Shown: positions 19,835-61,986 of the stretch, in pieces
How positions within the stretch are numbered: position 1 is the stretch's first letter
Layout: each line of letters opens with the position of its first letter
Source of the DNA: a virus
Strand: one strand, 5' to 3'
Virus record (IMG/VR): IMGVR_UViG_3300020109_000011
Span: 22,484-86,483 of that record
DNA length: 64,000 nt
Translations under genes and position numbers: made by a program
Notes under the pieces: model-generated
Told to the model about the DNA's origin: nothing
Databases searched by the model: none
What the model saw: the letters and a program-made list of their open reading frames with translations, nothing else

Positions 19835-20521
19835 TCAGGACCAGTAGGTCTTGCAGACCGGCCCGATGCCGTCCGCGACGCTCTGCGGGTCGGTCAGCGT
19901 GGCGCCGCACCGGATGCAGAAGCCCATCACGTGACCCTGGGTCGCGGCCTGGGTCATGCTCATCGGCTTCGCGCCCGCCTGGACGGCCTCGGCCAGCACC
20001 TTGGGGACCGTGACGGTCTTGGTCACCGGGGCGGTGATGTAGCTCTTGCCCGCGTAGGGGGTCCAGGTGCCGGTGACCTTCGGGGCGGTCTTGAACTCGG
20101 CGTAGGGGGCGCTGTGCTTCTTCCAGCTGCCCTTGACGGCCCCGGTGTAGCTGGTGACCTTGGTCAGCTGGCGCAGGACCGGGAAGGCGTCCTTGCCGGT
20201 CACGTCCCAGTAGAAGACCTTTCCGTCGATCAGGTAGTAGCCGAACTCGGGGAGCTCGGTCAGGGCCATGACCTCGGCGGCCGAGGGCAGGACCGGCGAG
20301 GCCGGGGCCGCGAAGGTCTGGTGCTTCTTCTTCGGGGCCTTCAGCGCCTCATCGATCAGGCCGCTGGCGGCGCCCTTGGCCAGGAAGCCGATCTTGGTCG
20401 AGAAGCGGAACTTCTCGGCTACGGCCGGGCACTCGCGGTCCTTGACCAGGCTGGTCAGGAAGGCGATCTGCTTGTCGGTGGCCGGGGCGGCCGGGTCCTT
20501 GATGGTGATCGTCTGCGTCAT
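19835..20521 (-). CDS. DUF6011-type zinc-binding protein, leaderless
   Basis: 228 residues beginning MTQTITIKDPAAPATDKQIA. The N-terminal 70 residues are helical (FLTSLVKDRECPAVAEKF). The C-terminus GFCIRCGATLTDPQSVADG, then GIGPVCKTYW, matches the DUF6011 zinc motif (C-x2-CG, S..GIGP.C). The CATACT -10 is six bases from the ATG and there is no ribosome-binding site, so the message is predicted leaderless. Role unknown; DUF6011 proteins are frequent in actinophages. Confidence 0.75.
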   Translation of the reverse strand: MTQTITIKDPAAPATDKQIAFLTSLVKDRECPAVAEKFRFSTKIGFLAKGAASGLIDEALKAPKKKHQTFAAPASPVLPSAAEVMALTELPEFGYYLIDGKVFYWDVTGKDAFPVLRQLTKVTSYTGAVKGSWKKHSAPYAEFKTAPKVTGTWTPYAGKSYITAPVTKTVTVPKVLAEAVQAGAKPMSMTQAATQGHVMGFCIRCGATLTDPQSVADGIGPVCKTYWS

Positions 20522-20527
20522 GGGAGA

Positions 20528-20557
20528 AGTATGCGCCTCGGGTGTCAACATTGTCAA
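20528..20557 (-). promoter_or_regulatory. Leaderless early promoter with tandem TTGACA boxes
   Basis: Minus-strand TTGACA (20552-20557) serves as -35, a second TTGACA (20543-20548) lies in the 18-bp spacer, CATACT (20528-20533) is the -10, and the ATG starts six bases later at 20521. Confidence 0.8.
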
Positions 20558-26456: not shown

Positions 26457-26717
26457 CTATCGGGTGGTCGTGATCTGGAAGGCCTTGCGGTGCTTCTGGT
26501 AGCCCTCCATGCGGGCCTTGCGGGCGGCGGCCTTGGTCCGGAAGGTCCGCACCGGCTCGTTCACGCGCGGGTGGCCGACGTGGTAGCGGACCTTGCTGCG
26601 GCGCCAGGCGGCCATCGCGCCGAGGACTCCCAGCGCGGGCAGGCCGTAGGTGAGGGCGATGACCCCGAGGCCCTGGAGGACGATCAGGATGTTGTCGAGG
26701 GTGATGGTCTGCGTCAT
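26457..26717 (-). CDS. Leaderless membrane protein, MTQT class
   Basis: 86 residues beginning MTQTITLDNILIVLQGLGVI. One hydrophobic segment (VIALTYGLPALGVLGAMAAW) is followed by a very basic tail (RTKAAARKARMEGYQKHRKA) that would face the cytoplasm. CATACT ends six bases before the ATG. Monocistronic between hairpins. Function unknown. Confidence 0.68.
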   Translation of the reverse strand: MTQTITLDNILIVLQGLGVIALTYGLPALGVLGAMAAWRRSKVRYHVGHPRVNEPVRTFRTKAAARKARMEGYQKHRKAFQITTTR

Positions 26718-26723
26718 GGGAGA

Positions 26724-26752
26724 AGTATGCAGGGCAGTGTCAACATTGTCAA
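26724..26752 (-). promoter_or_regulatory. Leaderless early promoter with tandem TTGACA boxes
   Basis: TTGACA at 26747-26752 and 26738-26743 (minus strand), 17-bp spacer, CATACT at 26724-26729, six bases to the ATG at 26717. Confidence 0.8.
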
Positions 26753-30006: not shown

Positions 30007-30329
30007 CAGGCTGCCACCGCCGCGACCTCGCGCCGGATCTGCTCGGCGGCCTGGTCCTTGACCTCGGCCTCGACCCGGTCCAGCCAGCCGTAGCCGCCCT
30101 CGAACTCGTGGGCCTCGGCGGCGTTGCGGGCCTTCTGGGCCTGGGCGGCCAGGTCGGCGGCTGCGGCCTCGGTGATGCCCTGGGCCCGCACGACCTTGGC
30201 GGCTGTGCTCCAGGCGAAGTAGCGGGTGGTGGCGGCGCGGTCGCTGCCATCGTTGCCGTAGTCGGCCCAGCGGGCCGACTCCATGAACCGGGTGGCTACC
30301 TGCTCTGCGGTGGTGCTGGTCTGCGTCAT
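30006..30329 (-). CDS. Leaderless helical protein, MTQT class
   Basis: 107 residues beginning MTQTSTTAEQVATRFMESAR, helical and Ala-rich throughout, with a WSTAAKVVRAQGITEAAAAD stretch. The -10 is GATACT, six bases from the ATG. Function unknown; co-transcribed with the HicA-like/C2H2 gene. Confidence 0.65.
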   Translation of the reverse strand: MTQTSTTAEQVATRFMESARWADYGNDGSDRAATTRYFAWSTAAKVVRAQGITEAAAADLAAQAQKARNAAEAHEFEGGYGWLDRVEAEVKDQAAEQIRREVAAVAA

Positions 30330-30335
30330 GGGACC

Positions 30336-30364
30336 AGTATCGCAGACCTTGTCAACACTGTCAA
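30336..30364 (-). promoter_or_regulatory. Leaderless early promoter with tandem TTGACA boxes
   Basis: TTGACA at 30359-30364 and 30350-30355 (minus strand), 17 bp, GATACT at 30336-30341, six bases to the ATG at 30329. The TGA of the upstream gene (30361-30363) is inside the -35 box. Confidence 0.8.
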
Positions 30365-41593: not shown

Positions 41594-41944
41594 ATGGCCA
41601 CCAGCGACAGGCTCCCACCGGGGTCCGACAGTTCCGACCGGCTCAACCGGCTGACCTCGGGGGACGACTCCGACGCGCACCTGGTGCGGGTCTTCCGGCG
41701 GCGCGTGAAGGTCCAGCCCGACCAGCCCGTCTGGGTGGCCTACCGCTACCGCACGACCCGGAACGGGGACCGGCTGGTGCGCCCGCAGCGGGCCTACCGC
41801 CTGATGGTGCACCTGCCCGGGCACGGGGAGCTCACCGGCTTCGAGCGGAAGTTCCCGGGCACCCCACTGGGCTGGGCGGCCTGGCGGTTCGCGGTCGCGC
41901 TGTGCGGGGTGCACCCGGTGCTGCGGCAGGCGCGGTGGCCCTGA
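41594..41944 (+). CDS. Hypothetical basic protein, leaderless
   Basis: 116 residues. Disordered Ser/Asp-rich start, then a basic beta-like core (HLVRVFRRRVKVQPDQPVWV, YRTTRNGDRLVRPQRAYRL) and a C-terminal helix. First gene of the rightward replication arm, coupled to the HTH gene by TGATG. No family recognised. Confidence 0.62.
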   Translation: MATSDRLPPGSDSSDRLNRLTSGDDSDAHLVRVFRRRVKVQPDQPVWVAYRYRTTRNGDRLVRPQRAYRLMVHLPGHGELTGFERKFPGTPLGWAAWRFAVALCGVHPVLRQARWP

Positions 41945-42561
41945 TGCCGCCGAGGGGGAAGATCACCGCGCCCGGACCGGTGCTGTACCCGGTCTGCGGC
42001 ACGGCGCAGGGCATCTACCAGCACCGCAAGCACGGCACACCGCGCTGCGCACCCTGCCGGGCGTTCAACGCCGAGCAGACCGAGCAGATCAAGCGGGACA
42101 TCTACCTGCGGCGCCCGAGGCTGGTCCCGGCGCGCGGGTCGCAGCGGCGGCTGCGCGCGCTGATGGCCATCGGCTGGCCGCTGGAGGAGATGGCCCGGAT
42201 GTGGGGCATCGGGCGCACGGTGCTTCAGCGGGTGCTGCACCCGGACACCGTGAAGGTCTCCCGGGCCCGTGCCGAGCTCATCGAGCGCGAGTACCGGCGG
42301 CTGGCCTTCGCGGGGGCCGGGCCCTCGGCACGGGCGCGAACCTGGGCGCGCAACCGGGGCTTTCCCGGGCCGATGGACTGGGACGACATCGACCGGCAGG
42401 AGCGGGAGCCGGTGCCGGGCTACGTCATCGAGCGGGACCACCAGGAGGCCCTGGTCATCGACCGCGCGGTGAAGAAGATGCTGGCCAAGCGGGAGCGCCG
42501 GTCCCGGTTGACACCGGCCGACCGGCAGGCCGCCCGGGCTCGCCGGGAGTCTGCGGCGTGA
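41944..42561 (+). CDS. Helix-turn-helix DNA-binding protein with Cys motif
   Basis: 205 residues, ATG in a TGATG overlap. CGTAQGIYQHRKHGTPRCAP near the N-terminus is the CGT..GY..H...G..PC..C pattern common in actinophage proteins. A helix-turn-helix follows (GWPLEEMARMWGIGRTVLQR), then a KVSRARAELIEREYRRL helix. The position beside the primase/helicase genes and the origin-like region makes it a candidate origin-binding or regulatory protein (inference). Confidence 0.68.
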   Translation: MPPRGKITAPGPVLYPVCGTAQGIYQHRKHGTPRCAPCRAFNAEQTEQIKRDIYLRRPRLVPARGSQRRLRALMAIGWPLEEMARMWGIGRTVLQRVLHPDTVKVSRARAELIEREYRRLAFAGAGPSARARTWARNRGFPGPMDWDDIDRQEREPVPGYVIERDHQEALVIDRAVKKMLAKRERRSRLTPADRQAARARRESAA

Positions 42562-42608
42562 GGCTCTACGGTTCTCGGACGGGACTTCGTTGAGCAGGGG
42601 GACAGACA

Positions 42609-42908
42609 GTGGGGGCACGGACCTGGGAGCGCAAGCCGCCCGACGCCTGGCGCCCGCTGTTCACCTCCCGGCTGGCGTGCGGGTGCTGGACCGACGACTG
42701 GACCGGTCAGGTGCGGGAGCCGTGCGTGGCACATGAGAGCGAGGGCCACGTCTCGGTGGTCTCGCCGGACCAGGACGGGGTGGCGGTGGCGCGCTGCCTG
42801 GTTCGGGAGTGCCGGTGGCAGGAGTCGCGGGCGACGGAGGGCTGGGCGGTCGAGGCCGCCCAGCGGCACTGGGCTGACACCCGTGTGGCGGGTGTGGCTG
42901 ACACCTGA
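42609..42908 (+). CDS. Small protein with Cys/His motif
   Basis: 99 residues from a GTG after a GGGGGAC stretch. LACGCWTDDWTGQVREPCVA and a C-terminal CLVRECRWQES with EAAQRHW form a zinc-finger-like arrangement seen in many short phage proteins. Function unknown. Confidence 0.58.
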   Translation: MGARTWERKPPDAWRPLFTSRLACGCWTDDWTGQVREPCVAHESEGHVSVVSPDQDGVAVARCLVRECRWQESRATEGWAVEAAQRHWADTRVAGVADT

Positions 42909-42980
42909 CCAGGGAGGGTCGGGTCCGTAAGGTCGAAGGTCCCCGTTGGAGCAGGGCTCGCGGGGACGGGGGGAGAACTC

Positions 42981-44126
42981 ATGGGCAAGGGCATCGTGGT
43001 CGAGCCGTCCCTGGCGCAGGGCTGGCCTGGGAGATCGCTGGACGGAGGAGCAGGGCAGGAGCAGCCGGAGGCGGGACCCGTTCCGGGGGACGGGGTGCTC
43101 GGGGGTGAGCGCTGGTTCCTGGTGTGGAACCGGGGCCCGGACGGCGAGTGCTGCTGCTGGCGCGGGTCGGTGCGCGGCGACGGCTGGGGCGCGGCGGGGT
43201 CCTGCCAGCGTCCCGGGAAGCACCCGTGGATCACCCGGGTGGACGGGGAGCTCTACGGCTTCGTGCACGGCGCGGCCGACGCGCTGACGTGGGACGCGCT
43301 GGTGGACCTCTACGGGCCGCCCGGGGGCGCACGGCAGCTGGCCGTGGTGCTGGACGGGCTGCTGCTGATCGACATCGACGGGCCCCGGGCCCTGCGGGAC
43401 TTCGCGCGGGTCAGCTACACCGTGCCGAAGGAGAAGATCCTGGGGGTCAGCACCTCACCCCGGGGCTTCCACGTCTGGCTGGACCAGGGCGGCTGGGACC
43501 AGAAGTCGCTGAACACCTGGCTGGCGCAGTGGCTCGGCAAGGCGGGCGGCTGGCACAACACCGATGCCGAGAAGGCCGGTCGGCGGGGCCTGCTGCTGGA
43601 CGTGCGCACCGGGGTCAACCGCTACGCGGTCTGGCCCGGGGAGGACGCGCTGGGGCAGCGCAGGTGGCTGTCGCGGCGCGAGTTCGGTGAAGTCCTGCGG
43701 GGCCAGCTGGTCGGGATGCCCGCCTGGCGGATGGTCGGCGGCGAGGGTGCGCCCTGGGCGGTTGACACGCGGGAGCCCGGGATGGCCGCCTGGATCGAGG
43801 GGCACCGGGGCGGTGCCGAGATCGATCTTCAGGGCTGGCAGCTGGACGGGTCGGACTCCGAGATGGACGTGGCCTGGGCCGAGATGGAGCGCTGGCTGGC
43901 GCGCCTGGAGGGCATGGGCGCGGGGTCCGGGCGCAACAACCGGCTGAACCAGATCGCGTACTACAGCGGGGCGAAGGCCGTCGCCGCTGGTCACAGCCTC
44001 GAAGCCGTCCGGGCTCGGCTGGTGGAGGTGGGGGAGAGCGTGGGGACGCACGGCGTGGAGGCCACCGTGGCCTCGGGTCTGAACTCGGGTCTGCTGACGA
44101 TCAAGAAGCAGCAGGGCAAGGGCTGA
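42981..44126 (+). CDS. Bifunctional prim-pol DNA primase/polymerase
   Basis: 381 residues, ATG after GGGGGAGAA. The archaeo-eukaryotic primase motifs are present: GKHPW (about 79), LLIDIDG with Asp131 and Asp133, and TSPRGFHVWL with His164. The C-terminal helical part (MDVAWAEMERWLARLEGMGA, NNRLNQIAYYSGAKAVAAGH) is of the type that follows prim-pol domains. It overlaps the DUF3987 helicase-like gene by one base (TGATGG), and the two probably act as primase-helicase partners at the origin downstream. Confidence 0.85.
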   Translation: MGKGIVVEPSLAQGWPGRSLDGGAGQEQPEAGPVPGDGVLGGERWFLVWNRGPDGECCCWRGSVRGDGWGAAGSCQRPGKHPWITRVDGELYGFVHGAADALTWDALVDLYGPPGGARQLAVVLDGLLLIDIDGPRALRDFARVSYTVPKEKILGVSTSPRGFHVWLDQGGWDQKSLNTWLAQWLGKAGGWHNTDAEKAGRRGLLLDVRTGVNRYAVWPGEDALGQRRWLSRREFGEVLRGQLVGMPAWRMVGGEGAPWAVDTREPGMAAWIEGHRGGAEIDLQGWQLDGSDSEMDVAWAEMERWLARLEGMGAGSGRNNRLNQIAYYSGAKAVAAGHSLEAVRARLVEVGESVGTHGVEATVASGLNSGLLTIKKQQGKG

Positions 44127-45850
44127 TGGCCGGGCAGGGGGACGCCTGGTCAGCAGCAACGGCGCGGATCACGACGATGATCAAGAAGGGCGTCGATCCG
44201 CTGGAGGGCCTGCTCGGGGAGGGCTACGGCACCGACAGGGTGGTCGAGAAGCACGCGCGGCTGTTCGCCGAGGCCAACTCGGTGGACGTGGCGATGATCT
44301 TCCCGGTGCTGCTCACGGCCTTCAGCGGCGCGACGCAGGGGGCCTTCCTGGCGCCGGTCTACGCCGAGGACTGGTCGGGGGCGCACGTGCCGCTGGTGTT
44401 CCAGTTCCTGGGCATCGCGGACTCGGGTGCCCGCAAGTCCACCGTGATCCGCGAGGGCAAGATCCCGCTGGAGATGGCGCTGAACAAGGGCGTCATCGAG
44501 CGGCGGTCGGCGGTGCTCGCGCTGCGGCAGCAGGCGATGGACGCGGCCGGGCACTCGGGCGGCAAGATGGACGAGCACGCCGGGGTCTACCAGAAGGTCT
44601 ACGACGGCGGGATCTGTGCGTCCACGCTGACCGACGGCGGTACGCAGGAGGGCATCCGGAACAAGCTGATCACCAACGGCGGGCACCGCGTGCTGATCAC
44701 CGGGGAATCGGACGTGCTCCAGGAGGTCTCGAAGTACCAGAAGGGCTCGGGGTCGCTCGGGCTGTTCGTGCGCACCTGGGACCAGGAGACCATCTCGGTG
44801 GACCGGGCCAGTGAGACCTCGCACCTCTACATGCCCGAGGCCAGCCTGCCGTTCCTGATCTTCGTGCAGCCCAACGCCTTCGCCGAGCACACGGCGCCCG
44901 GGCCGAAGGGCTACGACGAGTTCACCGACAAGGGCGTGTTCGGCCGGGCCTGGCTGTGGCGGATGCCGAAGCCGGAGATCCCCGAGGGCTTCGCGTTCAA
45001 GCCAAAGCCGCAGCCGGGGGAGAGCTCGGAGCTCCTGGCGGCGCGGCTGAAGACGCTGGACCGGATGACGGCGCTGGTGGAGCGCTCCAACTCCTACCGG
45101 ATGACCAAGGGCATCCGGTACGCCTGGGAGACCACGGCCGGGGCCACGGTGGCGCTGAAGGAGCCCGCCGAGGTCAAGCGCGAGCTCATCGACCTGGACC
45201 ACGAGGCGGGGGGCGTGGAGGCCTTCGTCCGGGTGCAGAACATGCTGCTGGACCTGCGGCGGGCACTGGCTGAAGCCGACGAGGAGGACCCCGGCCTGGC
45301 GCACCAGTACCACCCGCTCGTGGCCCGCTTCACCGACCACGTCATGCGGCTGGCGGTGCTGTTGACCTTGGCCGACGACCCCGGCGCGCTGACGGTTGAC
45401 ACCGGGCACGTCGAGGACGTGGCCACGAGGCTGGTGCCCTGGCTGTGGTCCGGCTGGGTCGCGGTCATGGGCGAGCGGCGCGCGGCGAACATCGCCGAGA
45501 TCGTGGAGGAGCAGACCCTGAAGAACCCGAAGGGGATGGACCTGTCGATGCAGGCGGCCATCCTGCGGGTGATGGGGCAGATGACCGAGGACGACGGCCC
45601 GGTGGGCACGCTGGTGGGCTGGCCGAAGCGGGAGATCACCGTGAAGGCGCGCTACCGGATCCGGGGCTGGAAGAAGGTCTCCGGGCTGGCCGGGATGCTG
45701 GGGCAGACCCTGGAGGAGATGGCCAACGAGCAGACGCTGGTCGCGCGGGTGGCCGGGGACGGTCCGCCGAACGCCTCGGGGCAGGTGGCGCCGACCTACA
45801 AGCTGACGGCGCAGGGGATCGCAGCGGCCAAGGGGCTGGACAAGCAGTAG
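44126..45850 (+). CDS. DUF3987-like helicase/ATPase
   Basis: 574 residues. Residues 55-280 match the layout of DUF3987 proteins, RecA-fold ATPases that partner prim-pol primases. The P-loop is unusual: GIADSGARKST (96-106) in place of GxSGxGKS. SGGKMDEHAG, a Walker B-like RVLITGESD and an FVRTWDQETISVDRAS block follow. A C-terminal winged-helix-like region (RYRIRGWKKVSGLAGMLGQT) may bind DNA. Contains a GGTTGACAC copy at 45394. Confidence 0.75.
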   Translation: MAGQGDAWSAATARITTMIKKGVDPLEGLLGEGYGTDRVVEKHARLFAEANSVDVAMIFPVLLTAFSGATQGAFLAPVYAEDWSGAHVPLVFQFLGIADSGARKSTVIREGKIPLEMALNKGVIERRSAVLALRQQAMDAAGHSGGKMDEHAGVYQKVYDGGICASTLTDGGTQEGIRNKLITNGGHRVLITGESDVLQEVSKYQKGSGSLGLFVRTWDQETISVDRASETSHLYMPEASLPFLIFVQPNAFAEHTAPGPKGYDEFTDKGVFGRAWLWRMPKPEIPEGFAFKPKPQPGESSELLAARLKTLDRMTALVERSNSYRMTKGIRYAWETTAGATVALKEPAEVKRELIDLDHEAGGVEAFVRVQNMLLDLRRALAEADEEDPGLAHQYHPLVARFTDHVMRLAVLLTLADDPGALTVDTGHVEDVATRLVPWLWSGWVAVMGERRAANIAEIVEEQTLKNPKGMDLSMQAAILRVMGQMTEDDGPVGTLVGWPKREITVKARYRIRGWKKVSGLAGMLGQTLEEMANEQTLVARVAGDGPPNASGQVAPTYKLTAQGIAAAKGLDKQ

Positions 45851-46237
45851 AAGCAGTAACGCTGGGTGACGGTGGCTCCTGATCTGTCGGTGGACGGATC
45901 GGGGGCCATTCGTCCATCTGAGGGGGAAACGTGCAGGTCAGACGGTGCACACCGTGGGGTGTGCCGGGTGTGCTCGGTGTGCAGGGCCGAGTGTGCGGAG
46001 AAACCGCAGGTCAGAGCAGTGGTGGGCCAGAGTGGGCCAGATGTGCCGAGGACAGAGGCGGGGATCAAGATCCGTCACACACAGTGACTCGCGCGCACGT
46101 CATGCGTGTTGAGAGAGAGAGAGAATACTTATCTACCAGATCTCCGACACCGTAAGCACAATCCGCACATTCTGGCCCACACCAGCGCTGACCTGCACAT
46201 TTTCGGCACACCAGAGGGCACAACGAGGGGCACAGCG
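45851..46237. other. Non-coding block with nested repeats, candidate replication origin
   Basis: 387 bp without a convincing gene. Left half: GTGTGC at 45959, 45968, 45977 and 45991 (9, 9 and 14 bp apart) and GTGGGCCAGA twice in tandem (46022-46031, 46032-46041). Right half: the inverse, TCTGGCCCAC (46171-46180) and several GCACA. GTGCAGGTCAG (45931-45941) is repeated inverted at 46188-46198. A purine-rich, AT-richer stretch GAGAGAGAGAATACTTATCT lies between. Iterons flanking an unwinding-type centre next to primase and helicase genes suggest an origin. Confidence 0.5.
46109..46129 (+). promoter_or_regulatory. Rightward promoter for small-gene operon
   Basis: TTGAGA (46109-46114), 9 bp, AATACT (46124-46129): the same box-to-(-10) spacing as the leaderless promoters, but the first gene starts about 100 bp downstream with its own GAGGGG ribosome-binding site. 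Confidence 0.5.
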
Positions 46238-46651
46238 ATGGCACGCAACGGGCGAGGACGGCAGGTGCAGCGGCGGGGGACGCCTGCCGAGCGGGCCGAG
46301 CGGCGGGTGGGGTCCCTGGATCGGCTGGGGGTGCCGGGGTCGAGGGAGGCCTACGCCCATGCCCGGCAGGTCTGGGAGGACGCCAGGCGGGCGGTGGCGG
46401 CGAGGGCCGACCAGCTGGCGCTGGAGACGCAGCGGGATCCGACGGGGCAGGCGTTCAACGGCCAGGTGGACCTGGTGCTCGTGGCAGCGCTGGGGGCGCA
46501 CCTGGCCCGCTGCGAGGTCTGCTGGGTGCGCTGGGTCGATGGCTGGCGGCCCGGGGACATCCTCACCGGGGCAGTGCGGCGGCGACCGGCTGGACAGGTG
46601 CTGAGGGCGGCAGAGCTCGAAGCGAGGGCGAGGAGGGGGCGGGGCAAGTGA
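46238..46651 (+). CDS. Hypothetical basic protein
   Basis: 137 residues, ATG after GAGGGG. Very basic N-terminus (MARNGRGRQVQRRGTPAERA), helical middle, and CEVCWVRWVDGWRPGDILTG near the C-terminus. First gene of the rightward small-gene operon. No family recognised. Confidence 0.6.
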   Translation: MARNGRGRQVQRRGTPAERAERRVGSLDRLGVPGSREAYAHARQVWEDARRAVAARADQLALETQRDPTGQAFNGQVDLVLVAALGAHLARCEVCWVRWVDGWRPGDILTGAVRRRPAGQVLRAAELEARARRGRGK

Positions 46652-47031
46652 CGGAGATGGGCAACGCGGGGCAGGAGCGGGCCGAGGACGGCCTGGAGGG
46701 GGCTGGCGGGTATCCCGGTAACCCCCAGAGCGTCCTGGAGGCGCTGAGGGGGTCGGGCGTGCACGTCGAGACGGAGGTGCACGGGGCCCTGACGGTGGTG
46801 ACCGCCGGGCCCGTCCCCGAGGGCCTGCCGCTGGCGCCGCTGGTCGGGGTGACCGACTGGGGACCCTGGGCGCAGCACAACGTGCCGTGCCCGGTCTGCA
46901 AGGAGCGGCACGCGGTGGTCAACCTGGCGGGCTGGGTGTTCGGGCCCTGCGGCGAGTGTCGGCGGGAGGGCTGGGAGCTCCGGCCGCCGGGGCGAAAGCG
47001 CTGGTGGGAGCGGTTGACACGGCGCCGTTGA
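46648..47031 (+). CDS. Hypothetical protein with zinc ribbon
   Basis: 127 residues from a GTG overlapping the previous stop. CPVCKERHAVVNLAGWVFG and CGECRREG form a Cys4 site. The last codons and the TGA stop are written by two adjacent TTGACAC boxes (47012 and 47026). Confidence 0.6.
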   Translation: MTEMGNAGQERAEDGLEGAGGYPGNPQSVLEALRGSGVHVETEVHGALTVVTAGPVPEGLPLAPLVGVTDWGPWAQHNVPCPVCKERHAVVNLAGWVFGPCGECRREGWELRPPGRKRWWERLTRRR

Positions 47032-47047
47032 CACCGGCTGCCATACT
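47028..47047 (+). promoter_or_regulatory. Leaderless promoter inside the operon
   Basis: TTGACA (47028-47033), 8 bp, CATACT (47042-47047), six bases to the ATG at 47054. A second GGTTGACAC lies at 47012, 16 bp further upstream. Confidence 0.7.
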
Positions 47048-47053
47048 CGGAAG

Positions 47054-47329
47054 ATGCCGCCGAACGACGCACAGACCCATCCCCGTGCCGCCGATCCCGA
47101 GCTCCCCGAGTGGGCGCAGCGCGCGGTCGGGACCCTGGTGACCTGGCAGGAGACCGAGGGCGCCGATGAGACGCCCGCGCTGGTGCTGGGGGCCCGCTGG
47201 GCCCGGGACGTGGACGGCAAGCCGCTGATGGGCGGCTACGTGGCGGTCCAGTTCCTGCTGGAGCGCGTGGACGGGAGCTCACGCTGGTCGGCGCCGCAGC
47301 TGGCGCCCGAGGGCACGGTGCCCGCATGA
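47054..47329 (+). CDS. Leaderless hypothetical protein
   Basis: 91 residues. ELPEWAQRAVGTLVTWQETE followed by beta-like LVLGARWARDVDGKPLMGGY and VAVQFLLERVDGSSRW. No ribosome-binding site. ATGA-coupled to the next gene. Function unknown. Confidence 0.6.
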   Translation: MPPNDAQTHPRAADPELPEWAQRAVGTLVTWQETEGADETPALVLGARWARDVDGKPLMGGYVAVQFLLERVDGSSRWSAPQLAPEGTVPA

Positions 47330-47907
47330 AGGTCCGGGTCAACCAGGGCGGCACCACGCTGGCGCTGCTGGACGAGGAGACCGGGGTCTGGCGGACCACG
47401 CAGGGCCAGCCGCTGGAGGAGCGCTACGTGGCCAGCTGGACGCCGCTGGTGCCCGCCGAGCCGACGACCGACGCCGCCCCGGCACCTCGGCAGGGGCCCG
47501 AGCCCACCGACTGGTGGTGCGGCAACTGCGGCGCCAGCGGGGACATCCCGGCGCCGGAGGCCTGCCCGAACTGCGAGGTGGGGCGCATCCACGAGGGCAG
47601 CAACGCCGCGCGCGAGGCCGACGAGGTCAGCAAGCTGTGGGGGATGTGGCCGGTCCAGGAGGTCGCGGTGGTGGTCTTCGTGCGGTCGAGGGGCGCCGAC
47701 CGCGCTGACGCCCGCGACAGGGCCGTGGCGGCCGTGCAGCGGGCCGTGGCGCTGGGCAGCGAGAACTCCGGCCGCCTGGAGGTCATGCACCGGGGCCAGG
47801 TGGTGGCCGGGGGATCGTTCATCACCGTGGACGGCGTGAGCGAGCTCGGGCGAGCGGCGGGCAACGGCCTGATCACCGTGCAGCCGACCAGCCGGGGCTT
47901 CGAGTGA
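47326..47907 (+). CDS. Hypothetical protein with rubredoxin-like zinc ribbon
   Basis: 193 residues, ATG in an ATGA overlap. The first 60 residues are beta-like (LALLDEETGVWRTTQGQPLE). WWCGNCGASGDIPAPEACPN, then C, is a Cys4 ribbon around residues 65-85, followed by an alpha/beta domain (VAVVVFVRSRGADRADARDR). Function unknown. Confidence 0.6.
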   Translation: MKVRVNQGGTTLALLDEETGVWRTTQGQPLEERYVASWTPLVPAEPTTDAAPAPRQGPEPTDWWCGNCGASGDIPAPEACPNCEVGRIHEGSNAAREADEVSKLWGMWPVQEVAVVVFVRSRGADRADARDRAVAAVQRAVALGSENSGRLEVMHRGQVVAGGSFITVDGVSELGRAAGNGLITVQPTSRGFE

Positions 47908-48440
47908 GCGGCGGCGAGCCGGGCTCGGTGGACCTGGACGAGGCGACCTTCGAGCTCGTGGGGCCCGTGGTCGGGGTGGCGCTCACGCTGCTGGAGATCC
48001 GCGAGAAGCTGGAGACCCTGGACGAGCTCGTGCGCGACGCGCGCCTGGACGATCCCCGCTGGGCGGCCGACCTGCGTGAGCGCATGAGCTCCGACCTAGG
48101 GGAGATGCTGGACCAGATGCGCCGCGAGGCGCGCAAGGTCGAGAAGTCCCTGGTCAGGCGCGTGTCAACCGCTGACCAGGAGGGCCCGGAGATGGGCCAC
48201 ACCTGGCGGTTCACCGTGCAGAGCAGGACCGCGAGCGGCACCTGGGACGAGGAGACGCAGCGCGCCACGGGTTACGCCGACGCCGAGGCGTTCACCGGGG
48301 TGCCCTGGAGCCTGGAGGTCCGGGGCTGGTCGCTGGTCGAGGGCCTGGAACGGGCTGTCCAGCTGGGCATGGGCGCCTGGCGCTGGCCCGACGGGCGGCG
48401 CCTGGACCACGACCCGGACGCCGAGGAGGGCCAGGAGTGA
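47904..48440 (+). CDS. Hypothetical coiled-coil plus beta domain protein
   Basis: 178 residues from a GTG overlapping the previous stop. Residues 15-90 are a helical coiled coil (LEIREKLETLDELVRDARLD); then a short beta domain (HTWRFTVQSRTASGTWDEET). A GGTTGACAC copy at 48162 encodes Val-Ser-Thr at the domain border. No family recognised. Confidence 0.6.
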   Translation: MSGGEPGSVDLDEATFELVGPVVGVALTLLEIREKLETLDELVRDARLDDPRWAADLRERMSSDLGEMLDQMRREARKVEKSLVRRVSTADQEGPEMGHTWRFTVQSRTASGTWDEETQRATGYADAEAFTGVPWSLEVRGWSLVEGLERAVQLGMGAWRWPDGRRLDHDPDAEEGQE

Positions 48441-48856
48441 GCGCTGTGGAGCACCGCCGGGTCGGGCGGGGGAAGTGCTCGTGTGGCGAGGAGGCCCCGC
48501 TGGGGACCGACATCCACCGCTGGTGGGACGTGCACCTGCTGGGCGAGCGTCCCGAGGGCTGCCGGTCGGTGCACTGCCTGGGCATCGAGTGCATGAACGA
48601 GTGCGAGAGCTCGCACCGGCTGGCCATGTTCGCGGCCCGCTGCGCGGCGGCCGAGGGCGTGCCGGTTGACAGCGTGCGTGCCGTCGAGCTCCAGCCCGAG
48701 CCGCTGGCGGTGGACCCGGGCTGGGCGGCCGTGGACCAGCTGCTGGACGCCATCCAGATCCGCTGCCGCGAGGGCGACAAGCGCTCGGACTGGCTGCCGG
48801 TGATCGACCGGCTGGCCACCGAGGCGCGCGAGCGGCTGCGCAAGATGGTGCCGTGA
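48437..48856 (+). CDS. Hypothetical Cys-rich protein
   Basis: 139 residues, GTG start in an overlap. KCSCGEEAP, then CRSVHCLGIECMNECESSHR contain seven cysteines in the first 65 residues; the C-terminal half is helical (VDQLLDAIQIRCREGDKRSD). Function unknown. Confidence 0.58.
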   Translation: MSAVEHRRVGRGKCSCGEEAPLGTDIHRWWDVHLLGERPEGCRSVHCLGIECMNECESSHRLAMFAARCAAAEGVPVDSVRAVELQPEPLAVDPGWAAVDQLLDAIQIRCREGDKRSDWLPVIDRLATEARERLRKMVP

Positions 48857-48999
48857 GGCGCGGGATCCTGGTCAGCGTGGAGTGCGGCCGGTGCGGCGAG
48901 GTCGTGCGGGGCCGCAGGCGGGGCTGGCGCACCCGGGCGGCCTGGCGCTGGCACCGGCTGCGCAGGCACGGCCAGCTGTCGGCGTGGAGCGCCTGGTGA
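48853..48999 (+). CDS. Zinc-finger microprotein
   Basis: 48 residues from a GTG overlapping the previous stop. VECGRCGEVVRGRRRGWRTR followed by AWRWHRLRRHG gives a C-x2-C...H-x4-H finger with a highly basic loop. Too short for most gene finders but fits the chain of GTGA overlaps exactly. Confidence 0.6.
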   Translation: MRRGILVSVECGRCGEVVRGRRRGWRTRAAWRWHRLRRHGQLSAWSAW

Positions 49000-49187
49000 G
49001 CGCCGTCTACGCCCCTACCGAGCCCGCCGATCTCCCGGCGGCCTACCAGGAGGCCGTGCAGGACTACCTGACCCGCCGCGAGACCGGCCAGCCCACCGGC
49101 CTGGCCCGGCTGCGGCAGCTGCACCCCGACCCTCTCTGCCACACCCCGGGCGAGGGCCGCTTCCCGTGCACGAGGTGCGGCGGGTGA
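48996..49187 (+). CDS. Small hypothetical protein
   Basis: 63 residues, GTG start in a GTGA overlap. Helical (LPAAYQEAVQDYLTRRETGQ) with a C-terminal CHTPGEGRFPCTRCGG that could bind zinc. Function unknown. Confidence 0.55.
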   Translation: MSAVYAPTEPADLPAAYQEAVQDYLTRRETGQPTGLARLRQLHPDPLCHTPGEGRFPCTRCGG

Positions 49188-54562: not shown

Positions 54563-54739
54563 TCAGCCGTTCAGGCGCTCGGCCAGGTAGACCGCGTCGC
54601 CCTCGAAGCTGCCGAGGACGAAGGCCAGGCGCCCGGCGGGGATGAGCTCCACGCCTGCGGGGGTCTGCACGGCGGGGCCCTGCTCCTGGGCTGCGAGCAG
54701 CTGGGCGGGGGTGACCGGGGTGGTGAGCGTCTGCGTCAT
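54563..54739 (-). CDS. Leaderless small protein, MTQT class
   Basis: 58 residues beginning MTQTLTTPVTPAQLLAAQEQ, ending AFVLGSFEGDAVYLAERLNG. Compact, mixed helix and strand. CATACT ends six bases before the ATG. Monocistronic between two hairpins. Function unknown. Confidence 0.62.
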   Translation of the reverse strand: MTQTLTTPVTPAQLLAAQEQGPAVQTPAGVELIPAGRLAFVLGSFEGDAVYLAERLNG

Positions 54740-54745
54740 GGGCCA

Positions 54746-54774
54746 AGTATGCATGGCCGTGTCAACAGTGTCAA
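54746..54774 (-). promoter_or_regulatory. Leaderless early promoter with tandem TTGACA boxes
   Basis: TTGACA at 54769-54774 and 54760-54765 (minus strand), 17 bp, CATACT at 54746-54751, six bases to the ATG at 54739. Confidence 0.8.
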
Positions 54775-61316: not shown

Positions 61317-61951
61317 AGCAGCGCGGTGGTGGTGAGCACCGCGCCCTGCTGCTCCAGCTGGGCCAGGGCGTCCTGGCTGCTCTGGAGGGCCACCCCGGCC
61401 ACCAGGTCGGTGATGACCCGGACCTGCGCCAGCCGCTGGCTGCGGACCAGGCCCAGCGCGTGCAGCGCGGACTCCTTCACGCAGTAGTCGGTGGCGATGC
61501 CGACCACGTCCAGGGCCTCGATCTGGTCCACGCCCAGCTGGTAGGACAGCGGCGCGTTGCCGCGCGCCGTGCGCCCCTGGAAGGCCGAGTAGTCCGGCCG
61601 ACCCTGGCCCTTGCGGATGACCTTGATCGGCGTGCCCTCCCAGCCCAGGACGAGCTCGGGGTGCAGCTGGGACCCCTCGGTGCCGGACACGCAGTGCACC
61701 GGCCAGGTGGTCACGTAGTCGGGGTCGGTGCCCGGCGCGGCGAAGTGGCCGCCGTTGAGGCTGGGCAGCGGGTCGTGCCAGTCCTGCGACACGTAGATGC
61801 GCGAGTAGCGGTCCTGGTGGGCCGCCATGATCTTCGTGGAGATGTCGCGGGCCACCTGGGCCCCGCCGGTCACCGCGAGGGCGCCGCCCTCGCAGAAGTC
61901 CCTCTGCACGTCCACGATCAGGAGCCCTCGGCGGGCCTGGGTCTGCGTCAT
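61313..61951 (-). CDS. Nicotinamidase-like cysteine hydrolase (isochorismatase family), leaderless
   Basis: 212 residues beginning MTQTQARRGLLIVDVQRDFC. The catalytic triad is complete: Asp14 (LIVDVQRDF), Lys114 (VIRKGQGRPDYSAF) and Cys157 (ATDYCVKES). Metal ligands typical of PncA are present in SQDWHDPLPSLNGGHFA (Asp57, His59, His69) and the substrate loop WPVHCVSGTEG. It should hydrolyse nicotinamide to nicotinate. CATACT lies six bases from the ATG. First gene of a long coupled operon that runs down to 57,714. Confidence 0.88.
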   Translation of the reverse strand: MTQTQARRGLLIVDVQRDFCEGGALAVTGGAQVARDISTKIMAAHQDRYSRIYVSQDWHDPLPSLNGGHFAAPGTDPDYVTTWPVHCVSGTEGSQLHPELVLGWEGTPIKVIRKGQGRPDYSAFQGRTARGNAPLSYQLGVDQIEALDVVGIATDYCVKESALHALGLVRSQRLAQVRVITDLVAGVALQSSQDALAQLEQQGAVLTTTALL

Positions 61952-61957
61952 GGAACA

Positions 61958-61986
61958 AGTATGGGCCCCGCTGTCAACTGTGTCAA
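61958..61986 (-). promoter_or_regulatory. Leaderless early promoter with tandem TTGACA boxes
   Basis: TTGACA at 61981-61986 and 61972-61977 (minus strand), 17 bp, CATACT at 61958-61963, six bases to the ATG at 61951. Both boxes lie in the loop of an 11-bp hairpin. Confidence 0.8.

What the first reader, a model, noticed from the sequence alone, without database searches (positions are those of the whole stretch)
45931..46230. Candidate replication origin with mirrored iterons
The only gene-free block over 300 bp. It follows the prim-pol and DUF3987 genes. GTGTGC occurs four times (first three 9 bp apart), GTGGGCCAGA is tandemly repeated and then inverted at 46171, and GTGCAGGTCAG (45931) is perfectly inverted at 46188. 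The two halves mirror each other around a purine-rich GAGAGAATACTTATCT centre. Repeats plus an easily melted centre beside replication genes are classic origin traits. The neighbouring HTH protein (41944-42561) could be the binder.
Basis: partly seen in the sequence, partly recalled or inferred. Interest (0 to 1): 0.68.

Follow-up and report, generated by a model that had tools for sequence, protein, structure and literature searches.

The report
Conserved mirrored-repeat phage replication origin candidate
A 300-base non-coding stretch in an actinobacterial virus has binding-site-like repeats mirrored around an easily melted centre; two related viruses keep the same layout with altered repeat letters, which marks it as a working DNA control site, most likely where the virus starts copying its genome.

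Summary
The block 45851-46237 carries GTGTGC iterons pointing inward from both sides, a tandem-plus-inverted GTGGGCCAGA, and GCAGGTCAG twice forward and once inverted, around one of the two most AT-rich 50-bp windows of the 86-kb phage. Two related phage contigs (prim-pol about 60%, DUF3987 about 40% identical) keep the same layout just 5' of the same small gene. There the iteron reads GTGTCGCA or GTGTCGCC (in one, 9 of 11 genome-wide copies are in the site), while the centre GTTGAGAGAG-N4-6-AATACT and GCAGGTCAG are unchanged. Mirroring beats dinucleotide shuffles in all three (P<=0.0005). A replication origin is the best reading (about 0.68). The likeliest binder is not the HTH protein at 41935-42561 but the predicted C-terminal winged helix of the DUF3987 helicase-like protein: among three genomes its divergence tracks the iteron change. 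A promoter/operator for the downstream gene is the main rival; GC skew gives no support. Extra finding: GCAGGTCAG, within a longer consensus, recurs in intergenic, often iteron-rich sites of many dissimilar viral contigs, including cluster O mycobacteriophages, where others had proposed an origin. Nothing here was tested by experiment.

The parts
42981..44126 (+). Prim-pol-like primase gene (381 aa); hDhD (LLIDID) and SxH (STSPRGFH) motifs present
   Evidence: Orthologue in G2 (about 64% identical) matches Pfam PF09250 Prim-Pol above its cut-off; own match only to a weak PHROG primase
44126..45850 (+). DUF3987 putative replicative helicase/ATPase gene (574 aa), Walker-A-like GIADSGARKST
   Evidence: PF13148 E=2.4e-21; PHROG 2373 DNA helicase E=2.9e-7
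45533..45850 (+). Coding region of the DUF3987 C-terminal winged-helix domain (residues 470-574), proposed iteron binder
   Evidence: AlphaFold2 of the domain: pLDDT 80.5, pTM 0.75; Foldseek top hits are mostly winged-helix proteins (MukBEF chains, PadR, MarR), none at E<=0.001
45931..46237 (.). Candidate origin: mirrored iteron block
45933..45941 (+). GCAGGTCAG element, copy 1
   Evidence: conserved in G1 and G2
46006..46014 (+). GCAGGTCAG element, copy 2 (GAAACCGCAGGTCAGAG)
46188..46196 (-). GCAGGTCAG element, inverted copy 3
45959..45996 (+). Left iterons GTGTGC x4 (45959, 45968, 45977, 45991); a further TGTGC at 46042
46156..46235 (-). Right iterons, inverted: TGTGC on the minus strand at 46156, 46165, 46195, 46206, 46218, 46230
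46022..46041 (+). Tandem GTGGGCCAGA x2, inverted partner at 46171-46180
46090..46149 (.). Centre: CGCGCGCAC then GTTGAGAGAG(46108-46117)-N6-AATACT(46124-46129); putative melting element, possibly also a rightward promoter
   Evidence: 56% AT in 50 bp against a genome mean of 29%; core conserved in G1 and G2 with N4 and N5
46238..46651 (+). Small conserved gene (137 aa, HLARCEVC motif), always immediately 3' of the site; function unknown
   Evidence: 44-50% identical homologues in G1 and G2; no convincing Pfam or PHROG match

Best explanation
The block is the phage's iteron-type replication origin. Proposed mechanism: the DUF3987 helicase-like protein, encoded just upstream, docks through its C-terminal winged helix on the short iterons, many of which are spaced roughly one helical turn apart and which point inward from both sides; the symmetric assembly melts the AT-rich centre; helicase and the neighbouring prim-pol start forks in both directions. 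The conserved GCAGGTCAG elements bracketing the iterons bind a second factor, perhaps from the host. Shown: anatomy, conservation of layout with diverged iterons, gene neighbourhood, predicted winged helix, and co-divergence in three genomes. Inferred: binding, melting, initiation, bidirectionality, and the role of GCAGGTCAG.
For: Same layout in two relatives: G1 has TGTCGCA 5x forward left and 6x inverted right with no exception, and 9 of 11 genome-wide GTGTCGCA copies in the site; G2 has GTCGCC 4x forward left and 5x inverted right (one further forward copy lies right of centre, at the start of the next gene). The window's iteron is this one with one base missing (GTGTCGCC to GTGTGCC) in nearly all copies. 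Shuffles: P<=0.0005 for mirrored k-mers in all three. The centre is the most AT-rich 50 bp of G1, ties with one other place in G0, and is among five such places in G2. The core pattern GCGCG-N-TTGAGAGAG-N-AATACT occurs in 2.9 million viral contigs only in these phages plus one unrelated chance match. Neighbouring genes are prim-pol, DUF3987, and (divergent) exonuclease, Sak4, SSB, polA and a helicase. DUF3987 co-diverges with the iteron: 110 of 239 informative columns group G1 with G2, against 28% in other proteins (P=1e-8; winged helix 26/48, P=1.6e-4). PMC5862659 predicts DUF3987 to be a helicase and suggests C-terminal winged helices of such replication proteins for origin recognition.
Against: No functional data. 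GC skew does not turn here. The centre resembles half of the phage's own promoter motif, so a promoter role is possible. In G2 two genes separate the site from DUF3987, so linkage is tighter to the downstream gene. Only three genomes are compared; faster evolution of the G0 lineage, or recombination, could mimic co-divergence, and the DUF3987 body leans the same way as its winged helix. GCAGGTCAG also occurs singly or in pairs away from replication genes in other phages.
Confidence: 0.68

Rival explanations
1. The block is the promoter-operator of the gene at 46238 and its operon: a rightward promoter in the centre, with the mirrored iterons as repressor or activator sites.
For: The site lies directly 5' of the same small gene in all three phages, even where genes are inserted upstream. 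The centre GTTGAGA-N-AATACT resembles the downstream half of the phage promoter family GTTGACA-N2-GTTGACA-N7-9-CATACT. A terminator-like GC-rich hairpin follows DUF3987 in G1.
Against: No -35/-10 pair at 16-18 bp; the spacing in G0 falls outside the family's range; there is no start codon at the expected +1 although most family members have one; 11-12 iterons over about 280 bp, symmetric on both sides, are unusual for an operator; iteron change tracks DUF3987 more than the other candidate proteins tested.
Confidence: 0.2
2. It is a general repeat-rich intergenic element of actinophages without a replication role, for example a host-factor site or terminator-like element.
For: GCAGGTCAG pairs occur in intergenic sites near terminase, integrase or other genes and singly in phage Joe near attP.
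Against: In these three phages only this locus combines several copies with mirrored phage-specific iterons and an AT-rich centre; several of the iteron-rich sites elsewhere adjoin or lie within a few kb of replication genes.
Confidence: 0.08
3. It is a partition, recombination (attP) or packaging site.
For: Such sites can also be repeat clusters with inverted arms.
Against: No ParB_N, tyrosine integrase or resolvase-family match in any of the three contigs; the terminase gene lies about 63 kb away on the record.
Confidence: 0.04

Closest known systems
Iteron-type phage and plasmid origins (lambda O/ori, P4 ori/crr, RK2 and R6K iterons)
   Same: Repeated short sites next to an AT-rich segment beside replication genes (comparison from general knowledge)
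   Different: Here the iterons are mirrored on both sides of the AT-rich centre, are very short (6-8 bp core) and are interleaved with a second conserved element; the putative initiator is a separate DUF3987 protein rather than an O, alpha or RepA protein
pRN1/BIP-1 prim-pol replicons (PMC4234260)
   Same: Prim-pol with a helicase and a C-terminal winged helix; site 3' of the replication gene; strong inverted-repeat folding potential (z -4.3, -9.5, -5.0)
   Different: pRN1 has no iterons and a single fused protein; here there are many iterons and two separate proteins, and in G2 the site is not directly 3' of DUF3987
Cluster O mycobacteriophage (Corndog/Firecracker) AT-rich repeat region, proposed by others as a possible origin (PMC4351075)
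   Same: Intergenic AT-rich element with flanking repeat sets near exonuclease and DNA polymerase/primase genes; contains the same GCAGGTCAG element, 1 forward and 2 inverted
   Different: Different iterons, divergent promoters, no DNA similarity found; origin function also untested there
Extrachromosomal mycobacterial prophage origins (RepA and RNA-based; PMC7157519)
   Same: Experimentally supported actinophage replication regions
   Different: Those are prophage (plasmid-state) origins with RepA or RNA initiation, next to parABS; here no ParB_N or integrase match

Membership tests
Iteron-containing replication origin | Multiple short repeats clustered at one locus of the genome | tested here: met
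Iteron-containing replication origin | AT-rich melting region within or beside the repeats | tested here: met
   AT-richness met; melting itself not tested
Iteron-containing replication origin | Adjacency to replication initiator/helicase/primase genes | tested here: met
Iteron-containing replication origin | Cognate initiator binds the iterons | not testable with these tools
   only co-divergence and a predicted winged helix
Iteron-containing replication origin | Supports autonomous replication / early copy-number peak | not testable with these tools
   no reads and no experiment
Iteron-containing replication origin | Strand-composition switch at the site | tested here: inconclusive
   cumulative GC-skew extremes lie elsewhere in G0 and G2 and about 4 kb away in G1
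DnaA-type origin (oriC-like) | DnaA boxes TT(A/G)TCCACA in the block | tested here: not met
   none in 45851-46237 with up to 1 mismatch
P4-type origin | Single alpha protein: TOPRIM primase-helicase-origin-binding fusion | tested here: not met
   separate prim-pol (AEP) and DUF3987 genes
pRN1-type origin | Large stem-loop 3' of a prim-pol/helicase/winged-helix gene, without iterons | tested here: not met
   folding potential is present but iterons are present and the proteins are separate
attP site | Integrase encoded by the phage | tested here: not met
   no PF00589 or PF00239 match in G000-G002; records may be incomplete
parS / centromere | ParB encoded by the phage | tested here: not met
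   no PF02195 match; ParB types outside this family not tested

The most novel reading that the evidence does not exclude
Many otherwise dissimilar actinophages share one unnamed origin element, about RWNNCYGCAGGTCAGAG, placed in several copies (often inverted) around phage-specific iterons next to different primase/helicase systems. A common, perhaps host-encoded, factor would recognise the shared element while each phage's own initiator reads its private iterons.
Probability: 0.35. Interest if true: 0.8.

Novelty: new variant of a known kind. Interest (0 to 1): 0.62.

Why it matters
To my knowledge, lytic replication origins are established for few actinobacterial phages. A candidate with a conserved layout, a named putative initiator domain and iterons that differ between relatives gives a direct specificity-swap test. 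If the GCAGGTCAG element marks such sites in many phages, origins could be predicted across a large group and a shared factor sought.

Tried and rejected
Skew as evidence: no support. DnaA boxes: none in the site. Partition and integration: no ParB_N, PF00589 or PF00239 match. Named phages: no match by DNA, or with the prim-pol and DUF3987 proteins; the HTH protein finds only distant phage HTH proteins. Further relatives: prim-pol, DUF3987 and exonuclease alignments gave only G1 and G2 plus distant exonuclease loci; genomes: none. Contig L020 matched the core pattern but is unrelated; the six genome contigs matches to the core pattern show no homology to the replication genes in tblastn. A genome-wide self-mirror scan did not single out the site in G0 or G2; GC-rich coding DNA probably competes. 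The whole DUF3987 model was poor (pLDDT 42); only its C-terminal domain is usable. Many GCAGGTCAG pairs are coding tandem repeats and were set aside. Not every GCAGGTCAG cluster has extra iterons: L061, L064, L084, L093, L106, L109 and L117 do not exceed shuffles. Searches of papers for the 9-mer returned mostly unrelated papers, presumably primers.

Full report
Setting. The window is the last 64 kb of an 86,483-bp virus record. Its polA and capsid proteins resemble those of Arthrobacter, Gordonia and Microbacterium phages at about 30-42% identity. Around 41.5 kb the genes diverge: exonuclease, Sak4, SSB, polA and a helicase run left; an HTH protein, a prim-pol-like gene, DUF3987, the 387-bp gap and a small gene at 46238 run right.

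Observation. The left half of the site shares more k-mers with the reverse complement of the right half than any of 2000 dinucleotide shuffles. GTGTGC is otherwise depleted in the window. The centre is 56% AT in 50 bp against a genome mean of 29%.

Relatives. A polA search brought contig G1 (82.7 kb; loci L008/L017) and a DUF3987 search brought G2 (89.6 kb; L016). Both carry the same replication genes in the same order; in G2 extra genes lie between prim-pol and DUF3987 and between DUF3987 and the site. In both, a site of the same layout lies just 5' of the homologue of the 46238 gene. It has two forward GCAGGTCAG on the left, one inverted (CTGACCTG) on the right, a run of CG alternation, then GTTGAGAGAG-N4-6-AATACT. 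The iterons differ: GTGTGC(C) in the window, GTGTCGCA in G1, GTGTCGCC in G2. In G1 all 11 TGTCGCA copies of the site obey the mirror, and 9 of the 11 GTGTCGCA copies of the whole contig are in the site. A layout kept while its repeated letters change together is what one expects of protein-binding sites that co-evolve with their binder.

Which binder? I compared three-way column patterns. Over the other shared proteins, 28% of informative columns group G1 with G2 (the two GTGTCGC phages). DUF3987 gives 46% (P=1e-8), its last 105 residues 54% (P=1.6e-4), the HTH protein 39% (P=0.045), prim-pol 36% and the 46238 product 42% (both about P=0.05). The background count contains a second call of the HTH gene and a shorter call of the prim-pol gene, a small conservative error. 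The last 105 residues fold with fair confidence as a helix-rich domain with a two-strand wing (pLDDT 80.5, pTM 0.75); the closest solved structures are mostly winged-helix proteins, without a significant E-value. DUF3987 is predicted in the literature to be a helicase of mobile elements, and C-terminal winged helices of related replication proteins are suggested to recognise origins (PMC5862659). With three genomes this is suggestive, not decisive; the DUF3987 body leans the same way (44%, P=6e-6).

Alternatives. The phage has a promoter-like family, GTTGACA-N2-GTTGACA-N7-9-CATACT, followed by ATGACGCAGAC at the start of the gene, in all three contigs. The centre of the site resembles its downstream half but lacks the upstream hexamer and a start codon, and in the window has a wider spacing. 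A promoter inside the site therefore remains possible, with or without an origin. No ParB_N, tyrosine integrase or resolvase match is present, which lowers partition and attachment-site readings. GC skew is uninformative.

The GCAGGTCAG element. Many hits are coding tandem repeats. But 14 of 118 loci also have an inverted copy within 400 bp, with 0.44 expected from base composition, a feature not used in picking them; L092 and L097 are related to each other, so about 13 look independent. In these and the other apparently intergenic clusters the element extends to about RWNNCYGCAGGTCAGAG, and 12 of the 22 clusters examined have an excess of other repeats, different in each, at P<=0.02. Clear cases by eye are L102, L105, L087 and L079. 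Some lie next to replication genes: L079 directly 3' of a TOPRIM/AAA_25 protein, L105 beside a prim-pol, L138 a few kb from an AAA_25 protein, a prim-pol and an exonuclease, L054 beside an exonuclease. L054 is mycobacteriophage Ryadel, of the cluster O group, whose relatives' authors had already named an AT-rich, repeat-flanked intergenic element near the left end as a possible origin (PMC4351075); the Firecracker sequence at the corresponding gap shows the AT tract running straight into GCAGGTCAG. Others lie next to terminase, integrase or FtsK-like genes, and phage Joe has single copies near attP and near its right end. So the element is common in actinophage intergenic DNA and is not by itself an origin mark. 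As a look outside phages, the first 50 kb of one Streptomyces plasmid held no cluster.

Verdict. The site is a real, conserved element with the anatomy of a cis-acting control site, most probably the replication origin (0.68), with DUF3987 as the likeliest binder. Binding and replication activity are untested.

Noticed in passing
window, e.g. minus strand 20498-20548, 26694-26744, 30306-30356, 54716-54766, 61928-61978; also G1 and G2: Promoter-like family GTTGACA-N2-GTTGACA-N7-9-CATACT followed 6-8 bases later by ATGACGCAGAC at the gene start: apparently leaderless mRNAs with a conserved first codon stretch, shared by the three phages.
   Followed up: partly
L087:2250-3250, L105:12350-13330, L102:4250-4850, L079:5050-5350, L138:1850-2200, L054:3600-3900: Intergenic arrays in other viral contigs combining GCAGGTCAG copies with contig-specific repeats; L087 has several different repeat blocks separated by GCAGGTCAG.
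   Followed up: partly
window 46238-46651: Small conserved protein with an HxxxCxxC motif (HLARCEVC), reminiscent of zinc-binding anti-sigma factors; no family match.
   Followed up: partly
record G000:C1:10241-19270: A single open frame of 3009 aa, high GC3, directly after the portal gene; not identified.
   Followed up: no
window 42000-49000: Unusually strong positive GC skew (up to 0.19) confined to the rightward early operon.
   Followed up: no
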